Shown here: in pieces, positions 19,322-40,602 of the stretch
Layout: each line of letters starts with the position of its first letter
How positions within the stretch are numbered: position 1 is the stretch's first letter
NCBI RefSeq assembly: GCF_001477495.1
Contig: NZ_LDTF01000036.1
Span: forward strand, 1 to 64,000
Direction of reading: 5' to 3'
DNA from: Sphingomonas yabuuchiae
GTDB taxonomy: Bacteria > Pseudomonadota > Alphaproteobacteria > Sphingomonadales > Sphingomonadaceae
Length of the DNA: 64,000 nt
Position numbers and translations under genes: made by a program
The notes under the pieces: model-generated
The model's database searches: none
What the model was told of the DNA's origin: nothing
The model's input: the letters and a program-made list of their open reading frames with translations, nothing else

Positions 19322-22300
19322 TTAGTTCGGTGGGTTCGATCCCGTCGAATGGAAGGCGATTGCGGGAAAAGCCGGCGATCCAGGCGTCCAGAATTCGGCC
19401 GAGTCGGAATGCACTGCGTAGAAGGATCGATCCAAGGTCGCGCGAACGGGCTGCGAAAGCGTAACGGCCTCGACGGTCCATTCATGCTCGCTGAGCCGCT
19501 CCGTCCGGAAGCCGACCGGGAGCGCATCGCCGTCGGCGATGAGCCGTTCGAGATCACCCAGATCGAACGCCGCGGGTTCGATGTCCGGCATGTCGTCCAG
19601 TGCAGCTTCGTCGTCGTCAAGATCGACGGCCGGCGGTGGACGGTTCAGATCCGCGGCGATCATCGCTTCCACGTCGACGACGGCTCCTGACAGGGCGAGC
19701 TCGGCGATGCGCTTGCTGACCGAGGAGAGGATCGGCTGCAGGCCTCCCACCAGGGATTCGAAAAGGCTGATGCGCGACGAGAGGGACTGATAGACCTGGG
19801 TCTCGATCGTGTCCGCATAGTGCAGGTTGACGATCCTGATCTCGTCGAAGCGTTGTCCGAGCCGATCGACCCGGCCGATGCGCTGTTCGACGCGCATCGG
19901 ATTCCACGGCATGTCGTAGTTGATCAGCGATCCGCAGAACTGAAAGTTGAGGCCTTCGGCTGCGGCATCAGTACAGAGCAGGATGTCTCCTTGGCCCTTG
20001 GCGAAGCGGCGCTTGATGTCCGCCCTTGAGACCCACCGCCAGCGTCCGTCGGCGCTGCGGATCTCGCCTCCTCGGCCGGAGAAGCAGATGACCTCACGGT
20101 TCGTGCGGTCGGCTACGAAGTCCCGTAGCGCGTCCATGGTGTCCGTGTAGCCCGTGAACACCATGGTCTGCTGGTAGCCCTCGGCTTCCAGTTTCGACAG
20201 TTCCTCGACGAGCGCCATCGCCTTGCTGTCCGGAGGAAGCTGCTTCACCGCGGTCAGCAGTTCCTCGATCGCCGCGGACTCGAGGAGCTGCCGCGCTTCC
20301 TGGTCGAGGACGGGAGTGTCGTCGACGTCGACCTCCTCACCTTCGTCCTCAAGACCGAGCATGTCGTCTTCGATGGCTTTCGATCGCTCAAGGCGTCCGC
20401 GCAGCGAGCAGGCCAGCGCCGCGAAGCTGGATGACAGCCGCTTGCGGTAGATCGTGAGGATGAAGCCGACCGCAGCACGCTTCTTCTCGTCCGCGTTCGC
20501 GTAGGCGTCGGTGATCAGCTTTTCGGTCGCCTCGTAGAGTTCTCGCTCCTCCGCCGACATGTCGACGAGGCGATCCCGGACATCGCGGGTAGCAATGCGC
20601 ACGTCCAGCTTTCCTGCGGCCTTGTAGCGACGCAGCAGAGCGCGCGTGTGTCGCGAGAGAAGCGCGGCGATCGGTGTCCAGCCCTTCAGGATCCGGATTG
20701 CAGCGGTCCGCTCCGTCGGCGTCAGGCGCCGCCGTTTGATTGACGAGGCGCCCCGGAGGGCGGAGAGCACGGTCTTCACCGCCACGCGGGATAGGGGCGC
20801 ATTTCGCCCGCCCGCGCCCATCCCCGCCGCGCGCGTCTCAGCGAGTTCGCCGTATGTGCGTTCAGTGGCTTGGAAAAGTGCAACGCACGCCTCGAACTCG
20901 TGCGTCGGAACGTTCGGCTGACGAAGCGCCTCGAAGTAGCGCTCGAAGTCGTCCGCGGTCCACTCGTCGGGCAGCCCCAGCAGCGACAGCAGGTCGTACA
21001 GCTCGAGTCCGTTGGTCTGCAGCGGCGTGGCGGTCAGCAGTACGAGACCCCGCGTACGGTGCTTCAGCTCGCGAAGAAGACGCATGAGCATGTTCGGCTC
21101 GGACTTCCGACCGGACCGTGAGACGCGAGCGTGGTGGGCTTCGTCCACCACGACCAGATCGTATTCCTCGGCACCGACCAGTTCCGGCCAACGCTCGCGC
21201 CGTCGGGCGAGATGGCTCGACATGATCACGAACGGCTCGCGCGACCAGTCCGATCGAGATACCGGCATGGCAACAATCTGCTTCGTTGCCGGATCATACC
21301 GGAGCATGTTCTGGCCGTCGTACATCGGCCAGTTCAGTGCGAACTTCTCACGCAGCTCGGCCTGCCACTGCGCGCAGACGTTGGCGGGTGCGAGGATGAT
21401 GCCTCTGCGCATGCGGCCCGCGAGCCAGGACTGCCGTAGGATCAGGCCGGCCTGGATGGTCTTGCCCAATCCGACCTCGTCGGCGATCAGCAGCCTCGGA
21501 GCATGATCCCGATGATCGCCGTACATGCGCAGGAACGCCTTGCGCTGATGCGGCCATGCATCGACGGGGCTCGTGGCTTCACCGACCCAGATGCCACCCT
21601 CCGGATCGTTCGCAGCGACAGCGATGCGGTCCCACAGGGAGGTATGGCTGGCCGCTTGCTCCACCGCCGCTGGATTCTGCACGATCACGGCAGGTGTTGC
21701 GGGTTCGTTCGGCTGATCGTCCCGGTCGTCACGTCGCGCGTCGTCGATCCGGGCGGGTATCTGGTCGTCGGGCGGCAGGAACTTCAGCAGCGCGTCGCGG
21801 ATCGCGGTCGGAACGTCGACAACCAGGATGCTTTCGGCTCGGTTGTTCCAATATCTCGCGAAGCAGGTGTCCTCGTCGTCGACGTACTCAGCAGCGGCGC
21901 CCCACGACGTGAACACGCTGATCGACTCGCCGTTGAGCTTCCAGCCCTGATAGGTCTCGTTGAGAGACCCGGTGAACGCCAGCCGGTTGCCGGTCTTGTC
22001 CTCGATGACGCCCGATTTCTCGTGAAAGATGACTGTGCCCGCGATTGGCTTGCGCGTCCCAGGCACGCATCGCACCGCGATGCGCACGTCGAGCAGTCCG
22101 TGCGCTACCAGCCAAGCGAGCAGTTCGAGCGCCTTGCGCTCGTCACCTTCCGGCGCGTCGGGCAACGCGTCGCCGACGCGATCGGCAACGAGTTCCGCCA
22201 TCGCCAGACCGCTCTCAATTGCATGGACCTCGTCCTCGTTCAGGGTGCAGCCCACGATCAGGCGCATCCGTCCTTCGTTCATCGCCAGGTGCTCGATCCC

Positions 22301-22453
22301 GGCCGATGCGAGCGCCAGCCCGGCCGCCGTGAAGTAGCCGGTGATGCGATCGTATCGCGTCGCCGTGGAGAGCGCCGGGACGTAGAACTTCCGCACGAGG
22401 TCGCCGTCCTCGCGCGTGAACTTGCGTTTCCAGGTCCGGTCCGTGAGCAGCAT
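19322..22453 (-). CDS. PLD-domain SNF2 helicase of a BREX/DISARM-related operon
   Basis: The 1043-residue protein has an N-terminal phospholipase-D-like region (residues about 30-190: YDRITGYFTAAGLALA, FHEKSGVIEDKTGNR, FTGSLNETYQGW) with an H-x-K motif. A SNF2/RapA-type helicase follows: Walker A ADEVGLGKTIQAGLIL (about 325-340), DEAH box VVVDEAHHARV (about 430) and C-terminal motif VI MRVEQRIGRVDRLGQ (about 880). It resembles the helicases of DISARM class 1 (DrmD) and related systems. Its ATG overlaps the stop of the membrane-protein gene by one base (TGATG). It ends convergent to the SPARDA operon, 32 bases apart. Confidence 0.9.
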   Translation of the reverse strand: MLLTDRTWKRKFTREDGDLVRKFYVPALSTATRYDRITGYFTAAGLALASAGIEHLAMNEGRMRLIVGCTLNEDEVHAIESGLAMAELVADRVGDALPDAPEGDERKALELLAWLVAHGLLDVRIAVRCVPGTRKPIAGTVIFHEKSGVIEDKTGNRLAFTGSLNETYQGWKLNGESISVFTSWGAAAEYVDDEDTCFARYWNNRAESILVVDVPTAIRDALLKFLPPDDQIPARIDDARRDDRDDQPNEPATPAVIVQNPAAVEQAASHTSLWDRIAVAANDPEGGIWVGEATSPVDAWPHQRKAFLRMYGDHRDHAPRLLIADEVGLGKTIQAGLILRQSWLAGRMRRGIILAPANVCAQWQAELREKFALNWPMYDGQNMLRYDPATKQIVAMPVSRSDWSREPFVIMSSHLARRRERWPELVGAEEYDLVVVDEAHHARVSRSGRKSEPNMLMRLLRELKHRTRGLVLLTATPLQTNGLELYDLLSLLGLPDEWTADDFERYFEALRQPNVPTHEFEACVALFQATERTYGELAETRAAGMGAGGRNAPLSRVAVKTVLSALRGASSIKRRRLTPTERTAAIRILKGWTPIAALLSRHTRALLRRYKAAGKLDVRIATRDVRDRLVDMSAEERELYEATEKLITDAYANADEKKRAAVGFILTIYRKRLSSSFAALACSLRGRLERSKAIEDDMLGLEDEGEEVDVDDTPVLDQEARQLLESAAIEELLTAVKQLPPDSKAMALVEELSKLEAEGYQQTMVFTGYTDTMDALRDFVADRTNREVICFSGRGGEIRSADGRWRWVSRADIKRRFAKGQGDILLCTDAAAEGLNFQFCGSLINYDMPWNPMRVEQRIGRVDRLGQRFDEIRIVNLHYADTIETQVYQSLSSRISLFESLVGGLQPILSSVSKRIAELALSGAVVDVEAMIAADLNRPPPAVDLDDDEAALDDMPDIEPAAFDLGDLERLIADGDALPVGFRTERLSEHEWTVEAVTLSQPVRATLDRSFYAVHSDSAEFWTPGSPAFPAIAFHSTGSNPPN

Positions 22454-23028
22454 CAGTGGGCCTTCGGTTCTGCGATCATCTGCTCGCGGGTGGAGCGGCC
22501 GGCGTTGGCGGAACGGGACTTGGCGGGGTCGGCGTTGGGGCCTGGTAGGCTGGCGCGCGGGGCGGCGGCGTCGAGCCCCGGCGATCGGTGTCCGGGAGCG
22601 ACGGTGGCTGTGGTCGATGGTTTCTGTCGGTCATTGGTCTGCACCACGTTGGCTGTCGTGAAGGAGAACAAACATAGAAGACTGACGGGAAAGGTCCAAA
22701 GGGAAACGCCATTCAGTACGTCTACGCTTCGGGTTGATGGCGGGGTGTGATCGTTGAGCGCGGACCGCCGCTTGTTCGCGGCGTTGCGGGCGGCCTGGAA
22801 GCTGATCGTCAGTGCGAGAAGACCGACGAAGTTGAAGAACCAGGCCGCAAGCAGAGCCGGCTTGAGCACGGCATCCTTCAGCGGAGCGACGTCTCCGACG
22901 AACGCGATCGAAGCCGCGAAGAGCGCCGTATGGACGAGACCGACGAAAGCGTCGCGGCCGGCATCGTTCTGGGCGTGAGCCAGATCGATGCCGTCGCGTT
23001 CGTGATTGTAGTCGCTCTCCGACCGCAT
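22453..23028 (-). CDS. Small membrane protein between methylase and helicase genes
   Basis: The 191-residue protein is not recognised. Three hydrophobic segments are visible: about 28-48 (FVGLVHTALFAASIAFVG), 55-78 (AVLKPALLAAWFFNFVGLL) and 108-128 (VSLWTFPVSLLCLFSFTTA). A disordered Ala/Pro/Thr-rich tail of about 60 residues follows. It is inserted between the methylase (6-base gap) and the helicase (1-base overlap), so it is part of the operon. A membrane protein is not a standard member of DISARM or BREX. It could tether the complex or act as an effector. Confidence 0.75.
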   Translation of the reverse strand: MRSESDYNHERDGIDLAHAQNDAGRDAFVGLVHTALFAASIAFVGDVAPLKDAVLKPALLAAWFFNFVGLLALTISFQAARNAANKRRSALNDHTPPSTRSVDVLNGVSLWTFPVSLLCLFSFTTANVVQTNDRQKPSTTATVAPGHRSPGLDAAAPRASLPGPNADPAKSRSANAGRSTREQMIAEPKAH

Positions 23029-23034
23029 CGTGGA

Positions 23035-25929
23035 TCAGGCGTCCAGCGGATCGTACAGGGACAGCTGCTTCGGCGCGCCGATCTCATCGCCGTAGACGAT
23101 GCGGCGGAGCTTCTCCAGCGCATCGAAGTCGTCCGCAGCCGGCTTGATCGCATCGTCGGCTTCGATGCCGGAGAACGTCTTGGACGGCGGCAGGACCTCT
23201 AGCAGGACTTCGAGAGCCACCTTGAACTCGTCGTCGTCGAGCAGGCCGTTCGCTTCCAACATATCGCGAGCGGCTTCGACGCTGGTCTTCTGTGCCGTCT
23301 GAGCCGCGTGATGGAGCGCATCGATCATTCCACGCGAGCCGTTCGCTGGACCCAACGCACCCTTGGCGACGCGCGTGGCCGAGTCCCACAGCTTGAGATC
23401 CGACCCCTTCTTCTCCGCCAGTCGTCCAACGACTTGGGTCATGTCGAGACCGACGGCACGCGCCAGCCGCAGACCTTCGTCGTAGGCGAACTGCGGTGCG
23501 CGGAATGCGTCCCACGCCAATGCGACCCATGCGGTAGCGGGGTCCATGTCATTCGCTGCACGCCGGTCGGCGAGCTGAGCGAGACGCCATGCCTTCACTT
23601 CGCGACGTGCGGCGTTCAATGCGTCCTCGGGGCGCACGGCGTAGGGATCGAACTCCTCGAGCAGATCACCCTGAGATCCCCTCTTCGCCGGCGGTAGTGG
23701 CGCCGGGTTGCCGCGGGTAAGCGGCCAGTGGCGTGAAAACGCCTCCAGCGCAGGACCAAAGCTCGCTAGGTAGAGGTCGACGCCGGTGATGCCGGCGATC
23801 TGGAAATCCCCAATGCGTTCGCGAACCGCCTTCGCGACGAGCGGCTCGACGTCTTCCCAGTAATTTGCTTCATCGCCTTCATCAATACGGGGCCGGCAGA
23901 CTAGAAAGATCGTGGAGTTTGCGGCAGCCTTATCCTTGATGTGTAGCGACCCTGAGGCTTCGGTGTTGACCGGCCAGGACGCCGTGATGACGAAGCCTGC
24001 GTGCATCAGCGACATCGCCAACGCATCCCACGCGCCTGTATCCTTATGCGTGAACATGACGGTCATGATGCCGTCGTCCTTCAGGACGCGACGACATTCG
24101 GCGAAAATGCCAGCCATCTTGTCCTGATAGTCGCGGTTGGCGAGCTTGGCAGCACCCTTCTGCCCTTGGAAATGAGTCTTATTGGCGACCGCCTCACTTT
24201 CTTTGTCGGCGAGACGGCGGGTGAACAACTCTGGCACGACCAGGCCGGCAGTGCGTTTGAGCCAGACGTAAAAGAAGTCGGACAGCTCGGCATACATTAC
24301 GTTGGCGCCGTAGGGCGGATCCATCACGACTGCGTCGACCGATCGATCGGCGATGTGTGGCATTGATGCCCCAGAGCCGTTGGTCACCGCAATCGTTCCG
24401 GTGACTTTCTGTACGGCATCCAGCATATCACCACGCTTATTGGCTCCGACCATTCCAATAAGCTCTCGTAGGGACTTGCCGGTTGCCTCGATCGCCCAAT
24501 CGAAGCCCATGCCTTCGATGAGGAGGGCCATCTCGGCATAGGACCACTTGAATGCAAAGTCGTGTCGATCAAAGGTGTTTGCCAACGTCTCACGATTGAC
24601 GATCCAACGCGTCATCCGCGAATTATAATCGCGTAGCTTGTCCATACCGATGGCGACATATACATAGGCCATCGCGCGAACTTCTGTCAGCGAGCCGTTC
24701 GATCGATCAGCTTCCAACATTTCTTGAAAGACCTCGACGGCTACCCCATGCGCCAATAGCTGGCGCGGTGAGAACATATCCCTCCAAAGGGGCATACCGT
24801 ACTGGCGGGGGCGATCGTCGTTAGTATTTTCGGGATACGCCTCGTTTGGCACGATATCCATCGCCTCCCACTCAGGAAGTTTGTCCGATAGTAAAGTAGC
24901 TACGAGCCCGCGATTGTCATCATTGGCGGTTGGCGCGCGATATCCGCGCACCCACTTCATCCGGTTCTTCCCGGTCTTGGTCTTGGTAATCACCTGTCTT
25001 TTGTAGACAACCGTGAACAGTTGCTCACCCATTCCGCCTGCTTGGGCTTGGCGTTTGATCTCGTCGCCATCAATCGGACGCCCACAATCAGGAAACGGAC
25101 AAATTCCATCGCCACCAGCTATCGTGCTTGGAGCGTGATCCTTACTGCTATCGACGATCTTGAAAGTGCAATGGCGAGCCGTGTCTCCGACGCCTGATGC
25201 CAAGTGCGTGACGATCGCTACGCCGGTTCCGTCAGGCGCAAGGCGCCAGTTAGGTGACAACGGCACCTGACCGGCACAGTATGGGCAGGCGATCGTGCGT
25301 GCCCACAGGTAAGCGTCGGGGCGGCAGTCCTTTTCGGGTTCCGCTGGGAACACGGTGGTCAAACGTGCTCGCACCTCACTTGCCCAAGTTGGTCCGATTG
25401 CTTCGTATTCCTGCAGTAGTTGGGCACCAAACTTGGCAGGATATTCGATTGTAGCTTTCTCGATGAGGCTAGCGACGGGGTTCAGATCGTTCGCAGCTGC
25501 CGACAGCCCCAAGCGGTAGGCCTCGAAAGGTATCGCTCCACCGCCGGCAGTTGGATCAAGGACCACGAACTCCTTATCTCCCAGGAGGTCGCCGAGCTCT
25601 TCCTCAGTAGGGTTGTGCAGGAAAGCTCGCGGATACCCATAGGCGTTAGCGCCGAGCCGCTCGCCTTGACGATCGGCGCGAGCGATCCGAACCCGCGCAG
25701 CAATCGGATCGCCGTGAATGCCGAGCGCATGCTTGAATGCGTCGCGATCCGCGTCCTCGGGCAGGATCGAAGCTAAGACTGCCGCGCGCGAAGCCACCAG
25801 CGGCCTCCGCGCCCACCAAACATGCAGCCGATTGGGCGCCGGGAAAGGGGTCATCGGGGTGCGCTCGCGCACGCTCTCGATGCCGATCTCGGCGATGGGC
25901 AAATAACGCTCGATCAGGCGAGTTGTCAT
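23035..25929 (-). CDS. DUF1156-domain DNA adenine methyltransferase (PglXI-like)
   Basis: The protein has about 964 residues. The N-terminus matches DUF1156 (RLIERYLPIAEIGIESVRER, LHVWWARRPLVASRAAVLAS). SAM motif I is VLDPTAGGGAIPFEAYRLG (about residue 125). A CxxC zinc-ribbon-like region lies near 215-285 (CPYCAGQVPL, CPFPDCGRPI). The catalytic motif is DAVVMDPPYGANVMYAEL (about 540), of the DPPY type that methylates adenine N6. In BREX type 3 and related systems such enzymes mark self DNA. The ATG at 25929 is chosen; a TTG at 25944, abutting the previous stop, is an alternative. It is co-transcribed with the DUF499 ATPase. Confidence 0.92.
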   Translation of the reverse strand: MTTRLIERYLPIAEIGIESVRERTPMTPFPAPNRLHVWWARRPLVASRAAVLASILPEDADRDAFKHALGIHGDPIAARVRIARADRQGERLGANAYGYPRAFLHNPTEEELGDLLGDKEFVVLDPTAGGGAIPFEAYRLGLSAAANDLNPVASLIEKATIEYPAKFGAQLLQEYEAIGPTWASEVRARLTTVFPAEPEKDCRPDAYLWARTIACPYCAGQVPLSPNWRLAPDGTGVAIVTHLASGVGDTARHCTFKIVDSSKDHAPSTIAGGDGICPFPDCGRPIDGDEIKRQAQAGGMGEQLFTVVYKRQVITKTKTGKNRMKWVRGYRAPTANDDNRGLVATLLSDKLPEWEAMDIVPNEAYPENTNDDRPRQYGMPLWRDMFSPRQLLAHGVAVEVFQEMLEADRSNGSLTEVRAMAYVYVAIGMDKLRDYNSRMTRWIVNRETLANTFDRHDFAFKWSYAEMALLIEGMGFDWAIEATGKSLRELIGMVGANKRGDMLDAVQKVTGTIAVTNGSGASMPHIADRSVDAVVMDPPYGANVMYAELSDFFYVWLKRTAGLVVPELFTRRLADKESEAVANKTHFQGQKGAAKLANRDYQDKMAGIFAECRRVLKDDGIMTVMFTHKDTGAWDALAMSLMHAGFVITASWPVNTEASGSLHIKDKAAANSTIFLVCRPRIDEGDEANYWEDVEPLVAKAVRERIGDFQIAGITGVDLYLASFGPALEAFSRHWPLTRGNPAPLPPAKRGSQGDLLEEFDPYAVRPEDALNAARREVKAWRLAQLADRRAANDMDPATAWVALAWDAFRAPQFAYDEGLRLARAVGLDMTQVVGRLAEKKGSDLKLWDSATRVAKGALGPANGSRGMIDALHHAAQTAQKTSVEAARDMLEANGLLDDDEFKVALEVLLEVLPPSKTFSGIEADDAIKPAADDFDALEKLRRIVYGDEIGAPKQLSLYDPLDA

Positions 25930-25944
25930 ACGGTCGTCTTTCAA

Positions 25945-26421
25945 TCAGCGAGCGGTTGAAGTGAGAAGGACTCGAAGCGCGGTCAGCACGCGGCGCGGGT
26001 TCTTGCGGTGTACGGCCATGCCCAGCCAGTAGGCGGCCTCCTCGCGCGGCATCTCCTCGATGCCTTCCGCTACCTGCACCATCGCGGAGCGCGATCGCAT
26101 CGGCGCGAGCACGCGGAACATAAGCGCGAGGCGGAGGGCAGCCGCCTCGTCGATGGGAAGACGGAGGCCATCGATCGGCATCACGTCGAGCCGGATGCCC
26201 GCGTCCTTCAGGCGCTTGAAGATGCGGATCTGGTTGATCTCCAGATTACGACCCGCCAGTCCGGCCACGCGGATCGGCGTGACGATATGCGGACTTGCGG
26301 ACGACGGCATCTGCCAGATGTCCACCTGCAGTTCGTTGCCGACGCGTCGCGCGCGCACCTCGTATGAAGGCTGGATCGCTGGCCGGTTCATGTAGTCGGC
26401 TTTCATTCTTGCATTCATCAT
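25945..26421 (-). CDS. Small conserved protein of the DUF499-DUF1156 operon
   Basis: The 158-residue soluble protein starts MMNARMKADYMNR. The ATG overlaps the stop of the DUF499 gene (ATGA), and the next gene follows at once. The C-terminal half (FRVLAPMRSRSAMVQVAEGI, EEAAYWLGMAVHRKNPRRVL) is helical. It looks like one of the small DUF proteins regularly found beside DUF499 and DUF1156 genes, possibly DUF7680 or a DUF3780 counterpart, but I am not certain which. No catalytic motif is visible; an adaptor role is likely. Confidence 0.75.
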   Translation of the reverse strand: MMNARMKADYMNRPAIQPSYEVRARRVGNELQVDIWQMPSSASPHIVTPIRVAGLAGRNLEINQIRIFKRLKDAGIRLDVMPIDGLRLPIDEAAALRLALMFRVLAPMRSRSAMVQVAEGIEEMPREEAAYWLGMAVHRKNPRRVLTALRVLLTSTAR

Positions 26422-29400
26422 GCTGCCACCTCCGCAGAGGCTTCCACGAACGCAGCGGCGGAGCCGAAGCGCGTGAGGCGCTCGGTGATCTTCTCCGCAG
26501 CGTCCGTCGTGAGATCCAGCCCGTCGGCGAAGGTCATTCGGATGACGACGTCGAACCGCTTCTCGCTGGCTGCGCGGAGCAGCGGCTCGACGTACTCCTT
26601 CAGGCTCTTCATCTCGCCGATCGTACCATCCGCCTTGATCGTGAGATCGCCGCCGGCAGCCGTGGACAGATCCCCGTCGATCTCGACGCGCTTGATAGCG
26701 TCGGGCACGGCATCGGCGACCGCCAGCAGCTTGAACGCATCTGCGTACTCGAAGGGAGAGATCGTCAGGGAGGCCAGGCGGCTGGCTTTGCTACTGCGTG
26801 CCTTCTGGAAGACGACCGTCAGCGCTTCCTTCAGGACGCCCTCGTGCGTGAAGACCGCACCCGCTCCGTAAGTGCTTCCAGGCTCCCTCACGGCCGATGC
26901 CGCGCCGGCGCCGCTCGGCGTTCCGATGACGGGCGTCGATCCGCCAACCTGCTGGAAGCCCTGATCCTGGGCGCCGTTCGTCGACGACCCGGCCGGACCG
27001 TCGCCACTGGTGGCAGTGCCACCGGACGGCGTGCTGACCACCACCCTCGGCCAGATGCCGTGCTCCTTGGCGTAGTCGGCGGTGAAGATGACCGACGACT
27101 CGTCGATGACGATGCTCGGCATCGGCTCGCCCTGACCGGCGACGAGATCCTCGCGCCTGTAGACGAAGAGGCCGTCCTCGATGCCCTTGCGGACCATCTT
27201 CTTGAACGGGTCGTCGCCGATGTGCATCGGCAGGCTGGCGTCCTTGCGGAACTCCTCGCGAAGCGCCGCCGTCGTGATCTGCCGCTTGAGCTTCAGTGGT
27301 GTCCGGTCACGGATGAACGCCGGCGCGTCGGGCGCGTCCTCCGGCGACTTCAGCTTTCCGCTGGCGGCGAGCTGCCGGACCACTTGGGTCTGCCCGATCC
27401 CAGGATTGGCTGCCGTCGCGGGATTGTCGATCGATGCGTACGCCAGACTGACCAGTCCCTCGCCAAGCGCCGCCTTCGACGGGTATAGGAGGTGGCGATA
27501 GCAACCTTGGATTGCGACGGCGACCGACGACTCCGCCCGGCTTTCCAAGCGAAGGATCTCTTGCTGCTGGTGTTCGGCGAGGTCGATCAGGCGTTCCGGA
27601 CGCTTCAGCTCGGACAGCGCCAGGCGGCGGGCCATCGCCTCGCGCATCTGCGGGACCGTGCGTTCGTCCGCCAGCAGGAACACGAGGTTGTTCCGCAGCA
27701 TCCGGAACTTGTCGCCTTCGCTGCCCTTGCGCGTGTACATGTTGGCGATGAACTCGGGAACCTCTTCGAGCTGCGACGAAACCTCTAGCGTCTCGTGCTT
27801 GACGACCACCAGCCGCGGCTTCCCTTCGCCTACGTCGTCCGGCACGTCGAACGCGCCGGCCGGGAATAGGATCGGGTCGAATGTCGGTCGGGATCCGCTG
27901 AAGATGTCCTTGATCCGGCTGTCGAGCTCGAGACGCACGCGCTCGGCATCGATGCCCTTCTCCTCTCTCGCGATGATCTGCGTCAGGTTCGCCTCCGCAT
28001 TGAATCGCAGGGGCGCACCGGGGCGGTCGTCGAGATAGGCGCTGTCCGTCTGGAAGCGGACGAGGCTTGCCTCCAGCAGGTCGAGATCGGATGCCGGCGA
28101 TGCGATCGAATAGCGCAGCTGCGCTGGCGTGATGCCACGCAGCTCGTTGTTGAAGGCCAGCGTGTGCACGAAGATCGTTCTGGCGGCATACGACGCGTAA
28201 GGCAGCAGGCCTGCGTTGACGTCGACATCTATCTGCTGCGCCAGCGCCGGCTTGCCAGAGGAGCCTGCGACGTCGTTGTTGATCGCAGGAACGAAGGCCG
28301 ACTGTCCGAGCCTGGTCGTGAACTCCCGCTGGACGCTGTCCTGGCTGAGGTCGATGTGATGCGCGTGGATCGCGTAGGCGTCCGCGACGCGGCTCTGCCA
28401 TATGCAGGAGATGGTCTTCGCGAGTATGCGTAGCATGCCGCGCACGCGCTGGAAGTCGGCCAGCGTCGACGTCTTGTCTGTGAGGGTGTCGATCAGATCC
28501 GGATGGAAAGGATAGGTGTCGATGAGCTTCGAGCCCCGAGCACCCTCCCGATTTTCGACGCGCTTGTCCGCCCAGATCGGGGCGAAGGCTGTTGCCACGT
28601 CAGCGGCACCCGACCGGACCTCTTCGAACAGGCGCCGCCTCAGCACCGCCACGGTCTCGTCGTCGCCCGTAGGGTTCAGGATGGTCGCCTTGCGGCCGGA
28701 GACGCTCTCCGCCTCCGAAATGAGTTTCGCCACGGCCTCGTTCTCCGCGGCGAAGGCGTCGGTCGCCTTGCCGTCGGAACGGACCGCCAGCGTGAAGACG
28801 ATCGCGGCCCTCGGCGAGGACTCCACTGCGGAGAACAATGCCTTGATGAACCCGGCGAGCTGATCTCGGCCACCTGCGCCGGGGCTCTTGCGCAGGTACT
28901 CCCCGATCTCGTCCAGAACGATCAGCGACGGCTGGTCGCCGAGCAGTTCCGCCAAAGTCTCCGAGCCCGGCGCACGGCGTTCCACGTCGGACGCCCGGAC
29001 CCGCTCATATCCCTCGCGACCGCGCAGCTGATAGGCGAGTTCGCCCCATGGCGTGTAGGCGAGAATGCCGTCTCCCATCGAGCGGCCATTGGTTGGGTCA
29101 GCCGCTTCGCCATCGAAGGCCGCGACTCGTGCACTGCCCGACATGATGACGTCGGTGAATTCGGACATGTTCGGAATGGCTGCCGCGTTGCGCGCCGCAT
29201 GGATCAGCGCGATCAGACCGTGGGTCTTGCCGCCGCCGAAGCTCGTATCGAGGCGGAACACGGAGGAGACGGCGCCGGGTGTACCGGACAGCCGTCTCAG
29301 CACCTGATCGAGAAGCTCGCGGAGACCTGCCGTGGGATAGGTGTTCTCGAAGAACCGGACGGGATCGACGTAGTCGGGCTTACCTGTCCCGTTCACGACG

Positions 29401-29495
29401 GGTCCGAGCCTTGCGGCGAAGTCCGCATCCGCCATCGTACCGGACAGCACGTCCTGGCGAGGGACGCAGAGGTCGTAGATCGTTGGCGTGGTCAC
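26418..29495 (-). CDS. DUF499-domain P-loop ATPase (PglY/BrxC-like)
   Basis: The 1025-residue protein starts with a GTG that overlaps the stop of the HTH gene (GTGA). The N-terminus (CVPRQDVLSGTMADADFAA) is typical of DUF499. Walker A is LDTSFGGGKTHGLIALI (about residues 83-100) and Walker B is LIVLDEIGEYLRKS (about 190). A mid-region of helices and a C-terminal domain of about 130 residues (LTISPFEYADAFKLLAV) follow, separated by a Gly/Ser/Thr-rich linker near 830-880. DUF499 ATPases occur in BREX-like systems next to methylases; they are thought to form large assemblies controlling restriction. Confidence 0.92.
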   Translation of the reverse strand: MTTPTIYDLCVPRQDVLSGTMADADFAARLGPVVNGTGKPDYVDPVRFFENTYPTAGLRELLDQVLRRLSGTPGAVSSVFRLDTSFGGGKTHGLIALIHAARNAAAIPNMSEFTDVIMSGSARVAAFDGEAADPTNGRSMGDGILAYTPWGELAYQLRGREGYERVRASDVERRAPGSETLAELLGDQPSLIVLDEIGEYLRKSPGAGGRDQLAGFIKALFSAVESSPRAAIVFTLAVRSDGKATDAFAAENEAVAKLISEAESVSGRKATILNPTGDDETVAVLRRRLFEEVRSGAADVATAFAPIWADKRVENREGARGSKLIDTYPFHPDLIDTLTDKTSTLADFQRVRGMLRILAKTISCIWQSRVADAYAIHAHHIDLSQDSVQREFTTRLGQSAFVPAINNDVAGSSGKPALAQQIDVDVNAGLLPYASYAARTIFVHTLAFNNELRGITPAQLRYSIASPASDLDLLEASLVRFQTDSAYLDDRPGAPLRFNAEANLTQIIAREEKGIDAERVRLELDSRIKDIFSGSRPTFDPILFPAGAFDVPDDVGEGKPRLVVVKHETLEVSSQLEEVPEFIANMYTRKGSEGDKFRMLRNNLVFLLADERTVPQMREAMARRLALSELKRPERLIDLAEHQQQEILRLESRAESSVAVAIQGCYRHLLYPSKAALGEGLVSLAYASIDNPATAANPGIGQTQVVRQLAASGKLKSPEDAPDAPAFIRDRTPLKLKRQITTAALREEFRKDASLPMHIGDDPFKKMVRKGIEDGLFVYRREDLVAGQGEPMPSIVIDESSVIFTADYAKEHGIWPRVVVSTPSGGTATSGDGPAGSSTNGAQDQGFQQVGGSTPVIGTPSGAGAASAVREPGSTYGAGAVFTHEGVLKEALTVVFQKARSSKASRLASLTISPFEYADAFKLLAVADAVPDAIKRVEIDGDLSTAAGGDLTIKADGTIGEMKSLKEYVEPLLRAASEKRFDVVIRMTFADGLDLTTDAAEKITERLTRFGSAAAFVEASAEVAA

Positions 29496-35226: not shown

Positions 35227-35484
35227 TCAGTTGGTGGGGTCGTATTCGCTGGTCGTGATGGCGCGGTTGCGGTCGATCCAGGCGTCGAGATCGTCCGGAT
35301 GGTACCTCACCGCCGTCCCCAGCTTGATGAAGCGGGGCGAGTTGTCGCCCTTGCGGCCGTAGAGCCGCATCTTCTCCAAGGTGTTCTTGGCCAGTCCGCA
35401 GTACGTCGCGGCCTCGGTGGTGGTCAGCAGGGGGCGGCGGCCGTGCGGCGTGGCGGGTGCGGCGCTGGTGACGTGGGTCTGCAT
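35227..35484 (-). CDS. AlpA-like excisionase / transcription regulator
   Basis: The 85-residue protein has a MerR-type helix-turn-helix (LLTTTEAATYCGLAKNTLEK) followed by RFIKLGTAVRYHPDDLDAWI. This is the classic layout of AlpA and phage or island excisionases. Such proteins direct the integrase towards excision or activate island genes. GAGGAGCA lies about 6 bases before the ATG and is part of a hairpin. It heads the operon running to 31656. Confidence 0.9.
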   Translation of the reverse strand: MQTHVTSAAPATPHGRRPLLTTTEAATYCGLAKNTLEKMRLYGRKGDNSPRFIKLGTAVRYHPDDLDAWIDRNRAITTSEYDPTN

Positions 35485-35629: not shown

Positions 35630-36118
35630 ATGGCCGCGATGCCGATGGGGAGCGATGAATTGATCACCATGGGCCTACGGGCCGCTCCCAAGATCGTGAC
35701 GTTCGCGATCTACGATTCGACGGAGCAGAACGTGCTCAACGTCGAGGACATCGTCGTTCCGGCCGCCTTCGAATGGCCTCAAGCGCTGAAGTACGTCAGA
35801 GGCAACGTGCTCGACATCATGCGCGAATACGGCGTGGTGCGTGCAGGGGTCAGAACCAGTGAGCCGGTGGCGCAGCGTCCCTCGGTTGATCGCATGCAGA
35901 TCGAAGGCGTCTTGCAGGAGGCGTTCGCCAGCAGCACGCTCGAAGCCTATTTCGCCGGCCCCATCTCCGTCATGGCGGCGAAGCTCGGGATGGCGCGTAC
36001 GGCAGTGCTTCCGATGATCAAGCAGGCGCGGAACGACTTGGACGTCGAGGGTTGGGATCAATTGTCAGAGGCCAGACGGGAAGCCGTCCTCTGTGCCATT
36101 GGAGCCGTGAATGCTTAG
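35630..36118 (+). CDS. Possible RuvC/RNase H-fold protein paired with a kinase
   Basis: The 162-residue protein starts at MAAMPMGSDEL; starts at 35639 and 35645 are possible. The order of elements resembles a RuvC-like RNase H fold: a first strand with an acidic residue (IVTFAIYDSTEQNVLN), helices (ALKYVRGNVLDIMREYGVVR), then VDRMQIEGVLQEAFAS and a C-terminal helix (ARREAVLCAIGAVNA) where RuvC proteins carry DA. Several catalytic acids seem absent, so it may be inactive. The stop lies inside the kinase start region (8-base overlap). The fold assignment is inference and needs a profile search. Confidence 0.7.
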   Translation: MAAMPMGSDELITMGLRAAPKIVTFAIYDSTEQNVLNVEDIVVPAAFEWPQALKYVRGNVLDIMREYGVVRAGVRTSEPVAQRPSVDRMQIEGVLQEAFASSTLEAYFAGPISVMAAKLGMARTAVLPMIKQARNDLDVEGWDQLSEARREAVLCAIGAVNA

Positions 36119-37163
36119 GCCACACCGTCGCGCGGAGCTCAATCTCCGCTTCCTCCGTGAGATCGGTCACGACGGCCAGAACAGTCGGACCTACGTTGCC
36201 CACGACGCTCAGCTCAATGCCGAGATCGTCATCAAGGAGATCGCGAAGGCACGTCTCGATGTCGGCCGCTTCTTCGCGGAAGCGCAGGCGCTGTATGCAA
36301 GCGCCCATTCGAACGTGGTCCAGGTTCACTATGCCTGCGAGGACGATGACAGCATCTATGTGGCGATGCCGTTCTATCGACGCGGTTCGCTGAAGGACGT
36401 CCTGTCGCAGCGCTTCCTGAGCGTACGGGAGATCGTCACGCTGGGCTGTCAGGTTCTGGCGGGCCTGCAGCACGTCCATTCCAACCGATTGGTCCACTTC
36501 GACATCAAGCCCGACAACGTGCTGCTGTCCGATCGGGGCGAGGCGCTGCTGTCGGACTTCGGCCTCGCGAGTCCGATCGGGGCGCGAGGCTTTGCCGAGC
36601 TCGATGTCCCTTATATCCGGATACTGCCGCCCGAGGGGTTCTCGGGATACGAGTTCCCAAGGACGTTCGACATCTATCAAGTCGGCGTCCTGCTCTACCG
36701 GATGTGCTGCGGAAACGAGGAGTTCGACCGTCAGTTCGGTCGCTTCGTGACGAGCACCGCTGCGGGCGATCGGTTCGATCGGAACGCCTTCCGGGTCGCC
36801 GTGGTGAATGGCCAGTTCCCCGACAAGCGGATGTTCCCCGCGCACATCCCGGAACGCATGCGCAGCGTGGTCCGGAAGTGCTTGGAGACGGATCCAGCAG
36901 CGCGGTTCGGTTCAGCCCTGGATGCTATGAACGCATTAGGGCTGGTCGAGGGCGCCCACCTGGACTGGGTGTATTCCAAGCCGCCGGGTTGCCAGAGGTG
37001 GGAAAAGAACGTAGAGGGAACGAAGTACGAGTTCGAGTTGTCCGACGCGGGCGGCACCACCTGCTACCGCATCTCGTCGACGGGAGCACGGAGAAGGGTC
37101 ACGCCGGGTTGCACCGACGGCATGACCGATAGGCAGGTGCGGACATTCCTCGGAGACACCTGA
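36111..37163 (+). CDS. Serine/threonine protein kinase with small C-terminal domain
   Basis: The 350-residue protein is a Hanks-type kinase: ATP Lys in AEIVIKEIAKA (about residue 43), helix-C Glu in RFFAEAQAL, catalytic loop LVHFDIKPDNVLL (HFD in place of HRD), DFG in LLSDFGLAS, and LPPEGFSG as the activation-segment end. The last 70 residues form a separate domain (RWEKNVEGTKYEFELSDAGG). GGAG sits 6 bases before the ATG, inside the preceding gene, so the two are coupled. Kinases of this kind occur in phage defence (Stk2, PglW-like), which fits the island. Confidence 0.9.
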   Translation: MLRPHRRAELNLRFLREIGHDGQNSRTYVAHDAQLNAEIVIKEIAKARLDVGRFFAEAQALYASAHSNVVQVHYACEDDDSIYVAMPFYRRGSLKDVLSQRFLSVREIVTLGCQVLAGLQHVHSNRLVHFDIKPDNVLLSDRGEALLSDFGLASPIGARGFAELDVPYIRILPPEGFSGYEFPRTFDIYQVGVLLYRMCCGNEEFDRQFGRFVTSTAAGDRFDRNAFRVAVVNGQFPDKRMFPAHIPERMRSVVRKCLETDPAARFGSALDAMNALGLVEGAHLDWVYSKPPGCQRWEKNVEGTKYEFELSDAGGTTCYRISSTGARRRVTPGCTDGMTDRQVRTFLGDT

Positions 37164-37339
37164 TGTCCAGAATCAGGAACGATCCCGGCAAGTATCAGAC
37201 GCGATCCGATCGTCTTCCTCAGGTCGAAGGTCGTCCTTCCCCCTGCGCGCAGCGGAAGGCTGAACGCGAAGAGGGATGGAGATCGGCACCGATCGATGGT
37301 GGATGGTACATCGACTTCCGTGATCGGAAGCGGGACTGA
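37163..37339 (+). CDS. 58-residue basic protein, third gene of the kinase set
   Basis: The ATG overlaps the kinase stop by one base (TGATG). The frame gives MSRIRNDPGKYQTRSDR, ends WYIDFRDRKRD, and is followed by TGA. It is short, polar and strongly basic with no motif I recognise. The start overlap suggests a real translationally coupled gene, possibly a kinase substrate or an inhibitor. It could be a chance frame. Confidence 0.55.
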   Translation: MSRIRNDPGKYQTRSDRLPQVEGRPSPCAQRKAEREEGWRSAPIDGGWYIDFRDRKRD

Positions 37340-37346
37340 CGGCGCT

Positions 37347-38150
37347 TCAGGCTGCGAGGAGTATCCCTACCTGATTGGTGTCGTCGGACGTCGGCGCGAC
37401 CGCGGCCCATGCCGCCTTCAGCTGCCGCTCCGTGAGCGTATCGCCTGAAATCTCACGACATGCCTGCCAGACGTGGCTCGGCCACCGCGGCACGACCCGA
37501 ACGTCCGAGCCGTCCGGCTGCACCGGACCGTACAGCGTCGGGAACGTCTCGTTGTACCCGGTGATCTCGACGCCGCGGAAACGGGCCGGAACATGGAATG
37601 TGCCGTCCGCGTCACAGAACCTGTCGTAGGGGTGGGGCGACCTGAACGGCCCCTCGTCCTCGAGGCTGGCGACGTGGCATGGACTGGCGGTGGAGATCTC
37701 CACGTAGTCCGAGCCGATCAGTCGCAGGGAGATGTGGGAGACGCTTCCCTCCTCGTCGTCGAGAGGGATGACCCGACAGTCGACCAGATGGAACGGGTGA
37801 TCGTCCCAGTCGCGCGGATCGTCCACGTCGTAGTCGGGCACCTTGTCACCTGGCACATCCGGTCCGTTCGTGGAGACGTAGGTGCATTCGGATGGGGACC
37901 AGACGATGCAGATCGAATTGAGCGGAAAGCGCGCGACGTTGCGTCTCACCACGTCGAGCAGCGCTTGGCGCTGGCTGGCGTTAATGGGGGTGTCCTGATG
38001 GAGGCCGCACGCCCGAGCCATGGCGCTGCCGTCGGTTCCGTCGATGGGCGCGATGGAGTCGAGGAACTGGTCGAGCCGGACCCGTCGATCCAGATCGCAG
38101 CGCTGTTCGACGATGAAGGGGAATGGTCCCGGAATCGGCCGCGTGGTCAT
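37347..38150 (-). CDS. Unknown protein
   Basis: The protein has 267 residues from MTTRPIPGPFPFIVEQRCD. AGGA eight bases upstream favours this start over MKNM at 38159. It is acidic and looks globular, with YDVDDPRDWDDHPFHLVDCR, SHISLRLIGSDYVEISTASP and RFRGVEITGYNETFPTLYG. No family recognised. It is convergent with the kinase set (7-base gap) and shares its strand with the gene at 38199-39089, whose stop is 48 bases upstream. Confidence 0.72.
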   Translation of the reverse strand: MTTRPIPGPFPFIVEQRCDLDRRVRLDQFLDSIAPIDGTDGSAMARACGLHQDTPINASQRQALLDVVRRNVARFPLNSICIVWSPSECTYVSTNGPDVPGDKVPDYDVDDPRDWDDHPFHLVDCRVIPLDDEEGSVSHISLRLIGSDYVEISTASPCHVASLEDEGPFRSPHPYDRFCDADGTFHVPARFRGVEITGYNETFPTLYGPVQPDGSDVRVVPRWPSHVWQACREISGDTLTERQLKAAWAAVAPTSDDTNQVGILLAA

Positions 38151-38198
38151 ATTTTTCATCCTGCGATGGAAGCTCCTCGCTGGATTTCCATGACGTTC

Positions 38199-39089
38199 TC
38201 AAGAGCCTCTCGGTCTCCCGCCATTGGCGATGTGCGGGAAGTCCTTCTTCACCCGCTCCCTGGCCTGATCGAAAACCGAATCCGAGAACGGACGATTGAT
38301 CGTCTTCGCCACGATGTGCCGGAGGGTGTCCTTCCTCCAATCTGATGGCCTGGTGCTGAGGTAAGCGCGTAGTGCCTGCTCACATTGGACGATGAGGCGG
38401 TCCTGCGGGGTCATGCCGCCGACCGGACGATCGGCCGGTAGCGCTCGACCGCTGTTGAGGGCCAGCGGCTTCTCTCTTGCGTATGCCGTCAGCTTCTTGG
38501 TGAGACCTTCGGTCTCCAGGAAGATATGATGCGTGCCCGCAGCCGCCGATGGCGTGCCCGGCGTCATGCGGCAGGAGGCAAGTCGCCCGACGGGATCGTC
38601 CATCTCCCAGTCGGAAGGATCGATGTCCTCCAGCCGTCCTCCTCCGATCGGGCGCGCATAGGTGCGGATCGATCCCCGGGCGGCCAGCTTCGCAATCGCA
38701 CCGGCTATTGCCCTGGCCGCCAACCGGGCATCGTGACGAATGCTGTTGTGCGTATCCGTTTCAAAGAGTCGGACCTCTTCCTCATCCGTCCATCCGACCG
38801 GGCGACTCATGCCTTCGTCGATCGAGAGCTCCTCCGTGACTGAGCCGGACCCATCATCGAATACTCGGCGATTGGGGGCGGACCAGTCCAGCCCACGGGG
38901 GAGCGGCAGATTGTGGTCACCAGCGTGCGACAGGAGATGGTCCTCCCAAGGATCGATCATCGCACGCCCGAGACGGATCGCGGCCTCGGCGAGGAATACA
39001 TGTCGACTGGTCGGCCAAGTTGAAGGGTCGGAATACCATTCGGTCCAGTCAACGGAAGAGATGCGGTCCTGCTCGACTCCGTCTTCCAT
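38199..39089 (-). CDS. Unknown protein upstream of the integrase end
   Basis: The protein has 296 residues from MEDGVEQDRISSVDWTEWY. GGAG six bases upstream favours this start, with 39110 as the alternative. It is polar and mostly helical. A segment near 110-135 (DARLAARAIAGAIAKLAARG) and a C-terminal helix-turn-helix-like stretch (RHIVAKTINRPFSDSVFDQA) suggest DNA contact, but this is weak. No family recognised. The 121-base gap to the integrase end holds nothing I can name. Confidence 0.72.
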   Translation of the reverse strand: MEDGVEQDRISSVDWTEWYSDPSTWPTSRHVFLAEAAIRLGRAMIDPWEDHLLSHAGDHNLPLPRGLDWSAPNRRVFDDGSGSVTEELSIDEGMSRPVGWTDEEEVRLFETDTHNSIRHDARLAARAIAGAIAKLAARGSIRTYARPIGGGRLEDIDPSDWEMDDPVGRLASCRMTPGTPSAAAGTHHIFLETEGLTKKLTAYAREKPLALNSGRALPADRPVGGMTPQDRLIVQCEQALRAYLSTRPSDWRKDTLRHIVAKTINRPFSDSVFDQARERVKKDFPHIANGGRPRGS

Positions 39090-39210
39090 GATGCTCCATC
39101 GCCTTGACATGGACGACGGAGCATTTCCTCCCTCGGCCCTCCATCATATGATAGACGGACATACGGTGGTGTCCATCGTGATGGCGGGCTCGAACGGCTT
39201 ACTACATTCC

Positions 39211-40602
39211 CTATTTGACCTTGCCCTCCTTCGCCTTCTTGACCCTCGCGTCGTCGTACTTCCGCTGCGGCCACGAGGACCGGAGCTTCTGCCACATCGG
39301 CTTGATCTCGAACCTGCCGAGAGGGGCGAGATCCTTCCCACCCGGCCAGGCGTCGGGCCTCTCCATGAGGGCGTCGAGGTGCGTGTTCCACGCGTCGACG
39401 GCCCGGCGGACGGCCGCACGGCGCTGGGCGCGGTTGTACTTGCTGCGCGGCACCTTGTGAGCGATCGCGAATTCGAGGTCGTCGCCGGGTAGGTTGAACG
39501 GCTCGTCCGCCATGATCGTGACGCCCGTGGTGCGGAAGTCGTGAGGCACCCAGTGCTCGAACTCGGCCATTGCGATGCCCTCCGCGTCGGCGAGGTCGAT
39601 GCGGCGCTGGACGTGTGCATCGATGTTGGCCTTGTCCTGCGTGGAGACCTTGATCGATTTCGACCCGTCGAAGCTGAATACGAAGCCGCGCCGCTTCCTG
39701 GGATCGGGATGGAGCCGTTCCAGGATCGCGACCACCTGACGGGGCAGGTCCATCACGTGGATCTCCTTGGTCTTCATCCGCGACGCGGGGATCGTCCAAA
39801 GCCAGGTGGCCTGGTCGATCTCCTCCCAACGCATCGCGGCGACCTCCTCCTTGCGCTTGAGGGTGCGCATGATGCACTCGTAGACGAGGCCGTGGGTCGT
39901 GCCGTTGTCGCGGAAGGCTTCCAGCAGGCGCTGGATCTCCGCCTGGCGCAGTACGCGCTCCCTTACGACCTGTGCCGGCACATCGAAGGCGTCGGCGGGA
40001 GACTTGGCGATCGTGCCGCGCTTCCTGGCGTCGTTCAGGATCACCTTCAGGTAGATCAGCCCCCAGGTTCGCGCCGAGATCGATCGGAGCGCCAGTTCCT
40101 TGAGGAAGGTGTCGATGTCGCCGGAGGTGAGCCGGTCGATGCGCTTGTCGGGCATCAGTCCCGCGACGTCGCGGGACAGGATGCGTTCGTGCTGCAGGGT
40201 GAGCGGCTTGCGCTCGATCTTGCGGCGCTCGATGTAGTCGGCGACGTAGGTCTTGATGACGAGCGACTTGGAGGCGTCCGCCTCCCTCGCTTCTGCGCGG
40301 CGCTTGTCGACCGGATCCACGCCCCGGCTCTTCTGGAAGGCGTGCTCCTGCGCGATCTCCCGCGCCTGCGCCGGCGTGACGTCGCCGAGCCTGCCGATCG
40401 TGATGCGCCTGGCGGGCCGCATCGGCAGGCGGTACTGGTAGACGAACACGACGATGCCGTTCTGCTGACGGTACGCGCCGAAGCCCAGCAGGCGGTCGTC
40501 CCAGACGAACTCCTTCCGGCCGGGCGCGGACGGTGGGATCGACTTGATGGTGTCCTTGGTGAGGGTGCGGCGTTCTCGCGGCAAGGTCGATGCTCCTTCC
40601 AT
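39211..40602 (-). CDS. int: Tyrosine recombinase (P4-type integrase)
   Basis: The 463-residue protein has the P4-type layout: N-terminal DUF4102 arm-binding domain (RRTLTKDTIKSIPPSAPGRK, WDDRLLGFGAYR), a SAM-like core-binding region (about 115-215) and a C-terminal catalytic domain. The likely catalytic residues are Arg in RTLKRKEEVAAMRW, His and Arg in HDFRTTGVTIM, His in AIAHKV and the nucleophile Tyr in RSKYNRAQ. It should catalyse integration at the dinB core. The ATG at 40602 lacks a clear upstream ribosome-binding site. GGAAGGAG lies 8 bases before an in-frame TTG at 40584, which may be the true start. Confidence 0.93.
   Translation of the reverse strand: MEGASTLPRERRTLTKDTIKSIPPSAPGRKEFVWDDRLLGFGAYRQQNGIVVFVYQYRLPMRPARRITIGRLGDVTPAQAREIAQEHAFQKSRGVDPVDKRRAEAREADASKSLVIKTYVADYIERRKIERKPLTLQHERILSRDVAGLMPDKRIDRLTSGDIDTFLKELALRSISARTWGLIYLKVILNDARKRGTIAKSPADAFDVPAQVVRERVLRQAEIQRLLEAFRDNGTTHGLVYECIMRTLKRKEEVAAMRWEEIDQATWLWTIPASRMKTKEIHVMDLPRQVVAILERLHPDPRKRRGFVFSFDGSKSIKVSTQDKANIDAHVQRRIDLADAEGIAMAEFEHWVPHDFRTTGVTIMADEPFNLPGDDLEFAIAHKVPRSKYNRAQRRAAVRRAVDAWNTHLDALMERPDAWPGGKDLAPLGRFEIKPMWQKLRSSWPQRKYDDARVKKAKEGKVK

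What the first reader, a model, noticed from the sequence alone, without database searches (positions are those of the whole stretch)
35630..37339. Possible new three-gene set: RuvC-like protein, Ser/Thr kinase and tiny basic protein
A 162-residue protein with a plausible RNase H/RuvC-like outline overlaps a complete Hanks-type kinase with a novel C-terminal domain. The kinase in turn overlaps a 58-residue basic protein (TGATG). The triple lies in a defence island and is not a system I recognise. A DNA-structure sensor driving a kinase is one possible reading.
Basis: inference. Interest (0 to 1): 0.72.

Follow-up and report, generated by a model that had tools for sequence, protein, structure and literature searches.

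The report
Phage-exclusion kinase with dead RuvC partner
Three overlapping genes encode a protein kinase, a probably inactivated relative of a DNA-junction-cutting enzyme, and a tiny basic protein; the same trio sits in phages whose kinase is known to block a rival phage, so this looks like a relative of a known self-sacrifice defence whose partner proteins have gone largely unexamined.

Summary
In detail: three overlapping + strand genes lie at about 35,660-37,339 (RuvC-like protein, complete kinase, 58-residue basic protein). They are not an unknown set. The same genes in the same order form the stk locus of 933W-type phages, whose kinase aborts HK97 infection (Friedman 2011, seen only as cited by others). 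The trio also occurs in Bacillus SPbeta phages, alpha-, beta- and gammaproteobacteria and one cyanobacterial MAG. RuvC-like gene and kinase look inseparable: 88 of 88 loci found by the first carry the kinase next to it; 60 of 61 found by the kinase carry the RuvC-like gene next to it, the exception being cut by a contig end. The third gene is present in 45 of 45 representatives and is under purifying selection. The model of the RuvC-like protein matches RuvC (Z 18), but the residues aligned with RuvC's first two catalytic acids are arginine in 42 of 42, so it is probably not a nuclease. Best reading: a 933W-Stk-type abortive-infection module in which a dead RuvC gates the kinase. Family membership is well supported; the sensor role is inferred. 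No paper listing I saw described the trio as one system.

The parts
35660..36118 (+).
   Evidence: start; PHROG 3875; model pLDDT 94.7; RuvC Z 18.0; Arg at both mapped catalytic positions
36111..37163 (+). Hanks-type protein kinase, stk family, 350 aa, non-RD (HFD)
   Evidence: Pfam Pkinase 1.1e-36; PHROG 2361 2.1e-62; catalytic residues in 42 of 42
36966..37160 (+). C-terminal domain of the kinase (residues 286-350), fast-evolving, fold not identified
   Evidence: Confident in model; mean identity 25% against 50% for the kinase domain; not covered by the structure list
37163..37339 (+). 58-residue basic protein, third gene of the module
   Evidence: purifying selection on homologues; leave-one-out profile match 1.1e-12
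35227..35484 (-). Context: divergent HTH_17 (Xis/AlpA-like) gene
   Evidence: Pfam HTH_17 1.5e-8
39211..40602 (-). Context: tyrosine integrase of the element
   Evidence: Pfam Arm-DNA-bind_3 6.2e-11 and Phage_integrase 6.1e-10

Best explanation
A three-gene abortive-infection module of the 933W-Stk type. Shown here: gene order, tight linkage, a predicted RuvC fold with arginine at the two mapped catalytic-acid positions, intact kinase active-site residues, and purifying selection on all three genes. Inferred: the RuvC-like protein no longer cuts and is the sensing or gating subunit; it keeps the kinase quiet in an uninfected cell and releases it on meeting a phage recombination product (branched DNA or a phage recombination protein). 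The kinase then phosphorylates cell proteins and the infection is aborted at the cell's expense, as published for 933W Stk. The small basic protein, translated last and coupled to the kinase, is most likely a kinase-binding regulator (inhibitor or adaptor); this is the weakest step.
For: Same trio in the stk locus of 933W-type phages, whose kinase is reported to be activated by and to abort HK97 infection (passages). RuvC-like gene and kinase adjacent in 88 of 88 and 60 of 61 loci by reciprocal searches (the one exception starts at a contig end). Same 14 phage records found with either protein. RuvC fold Z 18.0, R17 and R75 in 42 of 42 at the positions of RuvC's Asp and Glu. Kinase K42, E57, D131, K133, N136, D149 in 42 of 42. 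Phage, plasmid and defence-island settings in several copies.
Against: No phage-exclusion test exists for this copy or for any copy outside 933W that I saw. Nothing shows that the RuvC-like protein binds DNA or the kinase. hhalign with RuvC is weak overall (probability 28%, E 6e-4, 67 columns). Some copies lie beside metabolic genes (ThiC, SBF, PGI) and not in recognisable defence islands. 8 of 22 module-bearing phage records carry their own RecT-type annealing protein, which speaks against sensing recombination in general. The small proteins of the SPbeta group show no detectable similarity to the alphaproteobacterial ones.
Confidence: 0.6

Rival explanations
1. Toxin-antitoxin-like wiring: the kinase is the toxin and the RuvC-like and/or small protein is its dedicated inhibitor; a phage protein removes the inhibitor, and no nucleic acid is sensed.
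For: Tight co-inheritance (r = 0.90); in 4 of 88 loci the kinase frame is broken while the RuvC-like gene stays open, as if the kinase were the costly part; fast-evolving small protein and kinase C-terminal domain.
Against: An inhibitor need not keep the RuvC fold with 16 invariant residues, four of them glutamate and four arginine. The search started from the RuvC-like gene, so loci with a broken RuvC-like gene would be missed.
Confidence: 0.25
2. The RuvC-like protein is an active, altered junction nuclease and is the effector; the kinase switches it on.
For: RuvC fold; four glutamates (E78, E92, E97, E151) invariant in 42 of 42.
Against: The residues aligned with RuvC's first Asp and its Glu are Arg in 42 of 42; position 148, facing RuvC D138 by eye, is variable (E 26, N 5, A 4 among 42).
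Confidence: 0.07
3. A lysogeny or mobile-element regulator (as reported for the KKP kinase-kinase-phosphatase module of Pf phages), with phage exclusion a side effect.
For: Phage copies follow the prophage repressor gene; the KKP abstract (PMC11341870, search listing) describes a prophage kinase module with both roles.
Against: Copies beside metabolic genes have no such element in the few neighbours tested; the window copy has no CI-type repressor directly upstream.
Confidence: 0.12

Closest known systems
stk locus of 933W-type phages (phi24B EF517298, phi315 PV189403); Stk of 933W, Friedman et al. 2011 (not held; seen as cited in PMC8008677, PMC3564112, PMC3681748)
   Same: Same three genes, order and overlap style; kinase 37% and RuvC-like protein 32% identical to the window; same PHROG families 3875 and 2361
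   Different: Window copy is not behind a CI-type repressor but in an integrase element beside Hma-like genes; third proteins only marginally similar; no phenotype known
SPbetaL7/L6 genes 73-72-71 (Bacillus phages)
   Same: RuvC-like, kinase and a 60-aa ORF in order
   Different: Third ORF starts 24 nt after the kinase stop and has no detectable similarity to the alphaproteobacterial one
RuvC Holliday-junction resolvase
   Same: Fold, Z 16.6-18.0 over 140-149 residues
   Different: First Asp and the Glu of the catalytic site aligned to Arg in 42 of 42; the genome has a separate canonical RuvC
PD-T4-6 and mad6 kinases (PADLOC)
   Same: Kinase domain, 1.5e-35 and 6.1e-43
   Different: mad6 match covers 52-310 of 659 positions and NCBIfam MAD6 scores 106 against a cut-off of 460; here the kinase is always paired with the RuvC-like gene where upstream sequence exists
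KKP kinase-kinase-phosphatase module (PMC11341870, abstract start in listing only)
   Same: Prophage-borne kinase module with antiphage effect
   Different: Different partners as described there: two kinases and a phosphatase

Membership tests
933W-type stk module | Kinase of the stk family with catalytic residues intact | tested here: met
   37% identity, PHROG 2361 2.1e-62, residues in 42 of 42
933W-type stk module | RuvC-like gene directly upstream, overlapping the kinase start | tested here: met
   8-nt overlap in the window; adjacent in 88 of 88 loci
933W-type stk module | Small basic ORF directly after the kinase | tested here: met
   sequence similarity to the enteric form only marginal
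933W-type stk module | Aborts infection by another phage | not testable with these tools
   Needs phage assays; known for 933W from citing passages only
RuvC resolvase (nuclease) | RuvC fold | tested here: met
RuvC resolvase (nuclease) | Catalytic acids (first Asp and Glu) | tested here: not met
   Arg17 and Arg75 at the aligned positions in 42 of 42; the alignment itself is weak overall
RuvC resolvase (nuclease) | Cleaves Holliday junctions | not testable with these tools
   No assay possible
MADS (MAD6 kinase) | Score above the NCBIfam MAD6 cut-off | tested here: not met
   106.4 bits against 460
PD-T4-6 | Match to PADLOC kinase models | tested here: inconclusive
   1.5e-35 over 13-269 of 311, but 35 kinase-containing models of several systems match members of A4, so the match is generic
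PD-T4-6 | Stand-alone kinase gene (recalled) | tested here: not met
   Kinase paired with the RuvC-like gene in 60 of 61 kinase-found loci, the other cut at a contig end

The most novel reading that the evidence does not exclude
A conserved three-protein innate-immune switch spanning Proteobacteria, Bacillus phages and perhaps a cyanobacterium: a RuvC whose metal-binding acids became arginines reads branched phage DNA or a phage annealing protein without cutting, and by direct contact turns on a non-RD kinase that aborts infection, while the small basic protein sets the threshold. The published 933W Stk would then be one third of the machine.
Probability: 0.4. Interest if true: 0.82.

Novelty: new member of a known kind. 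Interest (0 to 1): 0.6.

Why it matters
How the Stk kinase stays silent until a rival phage arrives was not explained in anything I could read. This work offers two candidate regulators that travel with it, and named residues (R17 and R75 of the RuvC-like protein, K42 and D131 of the kinase) to mutate. If the dead RuvC is the sensor, a housekeeping recombination enzyme was turned into an infection sensor for a signalling kinase, which would be a new way to start abortive infection and would make the trigger question directly testable in harmless hosts.

Tried and rejected
Rejected: chance ORFs. Rejected: a wholly unknown set. Rejected: MADS membership and a stand-alone PD-T4-6 kinase. Led nowhere: Pfam, NCBIfam and PADLOC for the window's RuvC-like and small proteins (0 families); PDB by sequence (none; one match at E 1.1); promoter and terminator scan (0 and 0 found); BFVD search of the kinase (the 50 rows shown are kinases of other viruses, many unnamed). 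The structure list for the kinase covers residues 6-285, so nothing can be said about the fold of its C-terminal domain. Profile alignment with RuvC is weak as a whole and covers residues 9-75 only; the placing of E151 and position 148 against RuvC's last acids is by eye.

Paper searches aimed at the trio: (23, 86 and 87 returned no paper; one listed 20 of 25). Searches on Stk and HK97: (48 listed 40 of 15,588 and 78 listed 20 of 111). I saw titles and abstract starts, and passages of five papers; most subscription papers and bioRxiv preprints are absent from the library, so the absence of a description is weak evidence.

Rows dropped before counts: the 42-sequence sets A3 and A4 hold the window plus loci from L011 on, leaving out RuvC-like proteins 93% or more identical to one kept, fragments under 140 aa and loci with a broken kinase frame. 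The size and position limits for the third gene were set after seeing the list; its shuffles keep base composition only. dN/dS of the third gene could be calculated in 12 of 18 chosen pairs; in the other 6 dS is saturated. The L034/L044 kinase row is not valid, since L044's kinase frame is broken, and is not used. The 88 loci include near-identical phage copies and at least one contig present in two collections (L032/L042). The 22 records were my choice among the phage and viral loci. first tested only presence; adjacency was tested afterwards.

Full report
What is there. The window holds three overlapping genes on the + strand: a RuvC-like protein (ATG 35630 as first read, more likely TTG 35660), a kinase (36111-37163) and a 58-residue basic protein (37163-37339). 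The TTG start is preferred because a GGGGAG stretch precedes it by 7 nt, the annotated start of the phi315 homologue aligns with it, and the extra N-terminal residues are the poorly modelled ones. A divergent HTH_17 gene lies upstream and a tyrosine integrase gene about 2 kb downstream.

It is a family, not a one-off. tblastn with the RuvC-like protein found 5 plasmid records and 14 phage records. A profile scan of one genome per species found 29 loci and a scan of viral contigs 50. The named genomes are mostly alpha- and gammaproteobacteria, plus Lampropedia, a betaproteobacterium, and a metagenome-assembled Scytolyngbya, a cyanobacterium (a binning error is possible). The named phages include Bacillus SPbetaL6 and L7. 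The module is rare: 1 of 61 genomes around the own one, 2 of 385 of the class and 2 of 398 of the phylum, each count including the own genome. Of 5,426 complete E. coli genomes, 223 match the phi315-type trio, 221 of them over at least 80% of it.

Linkage. In 88 of 88 loci (L002-L089) a kinase of the same family follows on the same strand next to the RuvC-like gene (first seen). Counting the window too, the two genes overlap by 8 nt in 32, 7 nt in 30, 4 nt in 19 and 1 nt in 6 of 89, and do not overlap in 2. In reverse, a scan with the kinase alignment gave 61 viral loci; 60 have the RuvC-like gene next to the kinase, and the other begins at a contig end with the kinase. The same 14 phage records are found with either protein. 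Pairwise distances of the two proteins correlate at r = 0.90 (0 of 2,000 permutations as high; shared ancestry not corrected). In 4 of 88 loci the kinase frame is broken while the RuvC-like gene stays open; since the search started from the RuvC-like gene, the opposite case would have been missed.

Identity of the kinase. It matches PHROG 2361 (2.1e-62) and is 37% identical to the phi315 kinase. That kinase is identical over its full length to the gene named stk in the phi24B immunity region, which is annotated as similar to 933W. Passages in three papers say that the 933W kinase is co-transcribed with cI and aborts HK97 infection (PMC3564112), is expressed in the lysogen and mediates abortive infection by HK97 (PMC8008677), and is a tyrosine kinase activated by HK97 with little activity in uninfected cells (PMC3681748). 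The original paper was not held. Kinase residues K42, E57, D131, K133, N136 and D149 are present in 42 of 42, and the Arg of the usual HRD motif is Phe in 41 and Met in 1 of 42, so it is of the non-RD type. Residues 286-350 are modelled confidently but average 25% identity between members, against 50% for residues 12-285.

Identity of the first gene. The model (pLDDT 94.7, pTM 0.89) matches RuvC of Pseudomonas, Deinococcus, Thermus and E. coli at Z 16.6-18.0. Chloroplast resolvases and a lactococcal phage RuvC follow at about 12-13, and IS621-type, Tex and Spt6 RNase H folds at about 11. The first 12 Foldseek rows are all RuvC. Ten of 42 members match Pfam RuvC weakly, best 3.9e-4. Profile alignment with 16 canonical RuvC proteins from alphaproteobacterial genomes (of 20 loci, 4 not extracted) places R17 on the first catalytic Asp and R75 on the catalytic Glu (weak overall). 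Both lie in the expected strands of the model (12-19 and 71-75), and both are Arg in 42 of 42. E151, near the start of the last helix, is invariant and may stand for the last acid; position 148 is variable. The simplest reading is a RuvC that has lost metal-dependent cutting. The genome keeps a canonical RuvC on contig C182.

The third gene. All 45 representative loci have an ORF of 45-80 codons starting between -30 and +35 nt of the kinase stop, against 13.7% of shuffled downstream sequences; all 45 proteins are net basic, +1 to +11. dN/dS is 0.07-0.41 in the 12 of 18 pairs where it could be calculated. The window protein matches a model built from the 16 other alphaproteobacterial-type ones (1.1e-12). 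A model that includes the window reaches the cyanobacterial copy (7.2e-11) and several gamma and beta copies, the enteric ones only marginally, and the SPbeta group (L010, L087-L089) not at all.

Setting. In phi24B, phi315, an E. coli plasmid and a Providencia plasmid the trio lies behind a repressor gene (annotated CI, CI-like, HTH and LexA-family). In Mesorhizobium it follows DUF4433 and macro-domain genes. In the window it lies in an integrase-bearing stretch with HmaB/HmaC-like and PLD-helicase genes. Of 20 neighbours tested elsewhere, some are defence- or phage-like (PLD/SNF2 helicase, ResIII helicase, OLD-like, HipA_C, S24 repressor), some are metabolic or transport genes (ThiC, SBF, phosphoglucose isomerase, MFS and others), and the rest had no match. 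It behaves like a stand-alone cassette.

Trigger, a lead only. I recall, without having read it here, that HK97 orf41 is the reported activator of 933W Stk. In the HK97 record no gene in the stretch I read (15,000-39,732) is labelled 41; the slot between genes 40 and 42 is erf, whose product is labelled Gp40 a second time. It is an ERF-family annealing protein (2.1e-44). If orf41 is erf, a link between a recombination protein and a RuvC-derived partner suggests itself. My recollection may be wrong, and the paper may use another numbering. Of 22 module-bearing phage records that I chose, 0 have an ERF match and 8 a RecT-type match. That would fit a trigger specific to ERF rather than any annealing protein, but Erf relatives are uncommon anyway (572 of 50,697 phage records) and many of the 22 may be fragments.

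Verdict. The set belongs with the 933W stk locus, so it is a new member of a known kind. The new content is that Stk comes with two partners that travel with it, one of them a RuvC with arginines where the catalytic acids should be, and that the trio spans distant bacteria. None of my paper searches (several lists capped) showed a paper describing the trio.

Noticed in passing
19322-29495 (-): Gene group matching HmaB (2.3e-72), HmaC (1e-101) and a PLD/SNF2 helicase (PLD_Helicase 1.6e-71, HmaA 1.5e-50) in PADLOC: probably an Hma-like or DUF1156/DUF499 defence system.
   Followed up: partly
10165-13011 (-): UvrD-type helicase with a topoisomerase zinc finger; PADLOC helicase models (RTasHel, GajB) match, probably generically.
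   Followed up: no
37347-38159 and 38199-39110 (-): Two genes between the trio and the integrase without any significant Pfam, NCBIfam or PADLOC match.
   Followed up: no
L007, L044, L053, L059: Kinase frame broken (with insertion sequences annotated downstream in L007) while the RuvC-like gene is open.
   Followed up: partly
L005 2227-3947: DUF4433 and macro-domain genes (DarT/DarG-like, label recalled) directly upstream of the Mesorhizobium trio.
   Followed up: no
L111 (AF069529 23000-26000): In the HK97 record the erf gene fills the unlabelled slot 41, and its product is labelled Gp40, as is that of the next gene.
   Followed up: partly
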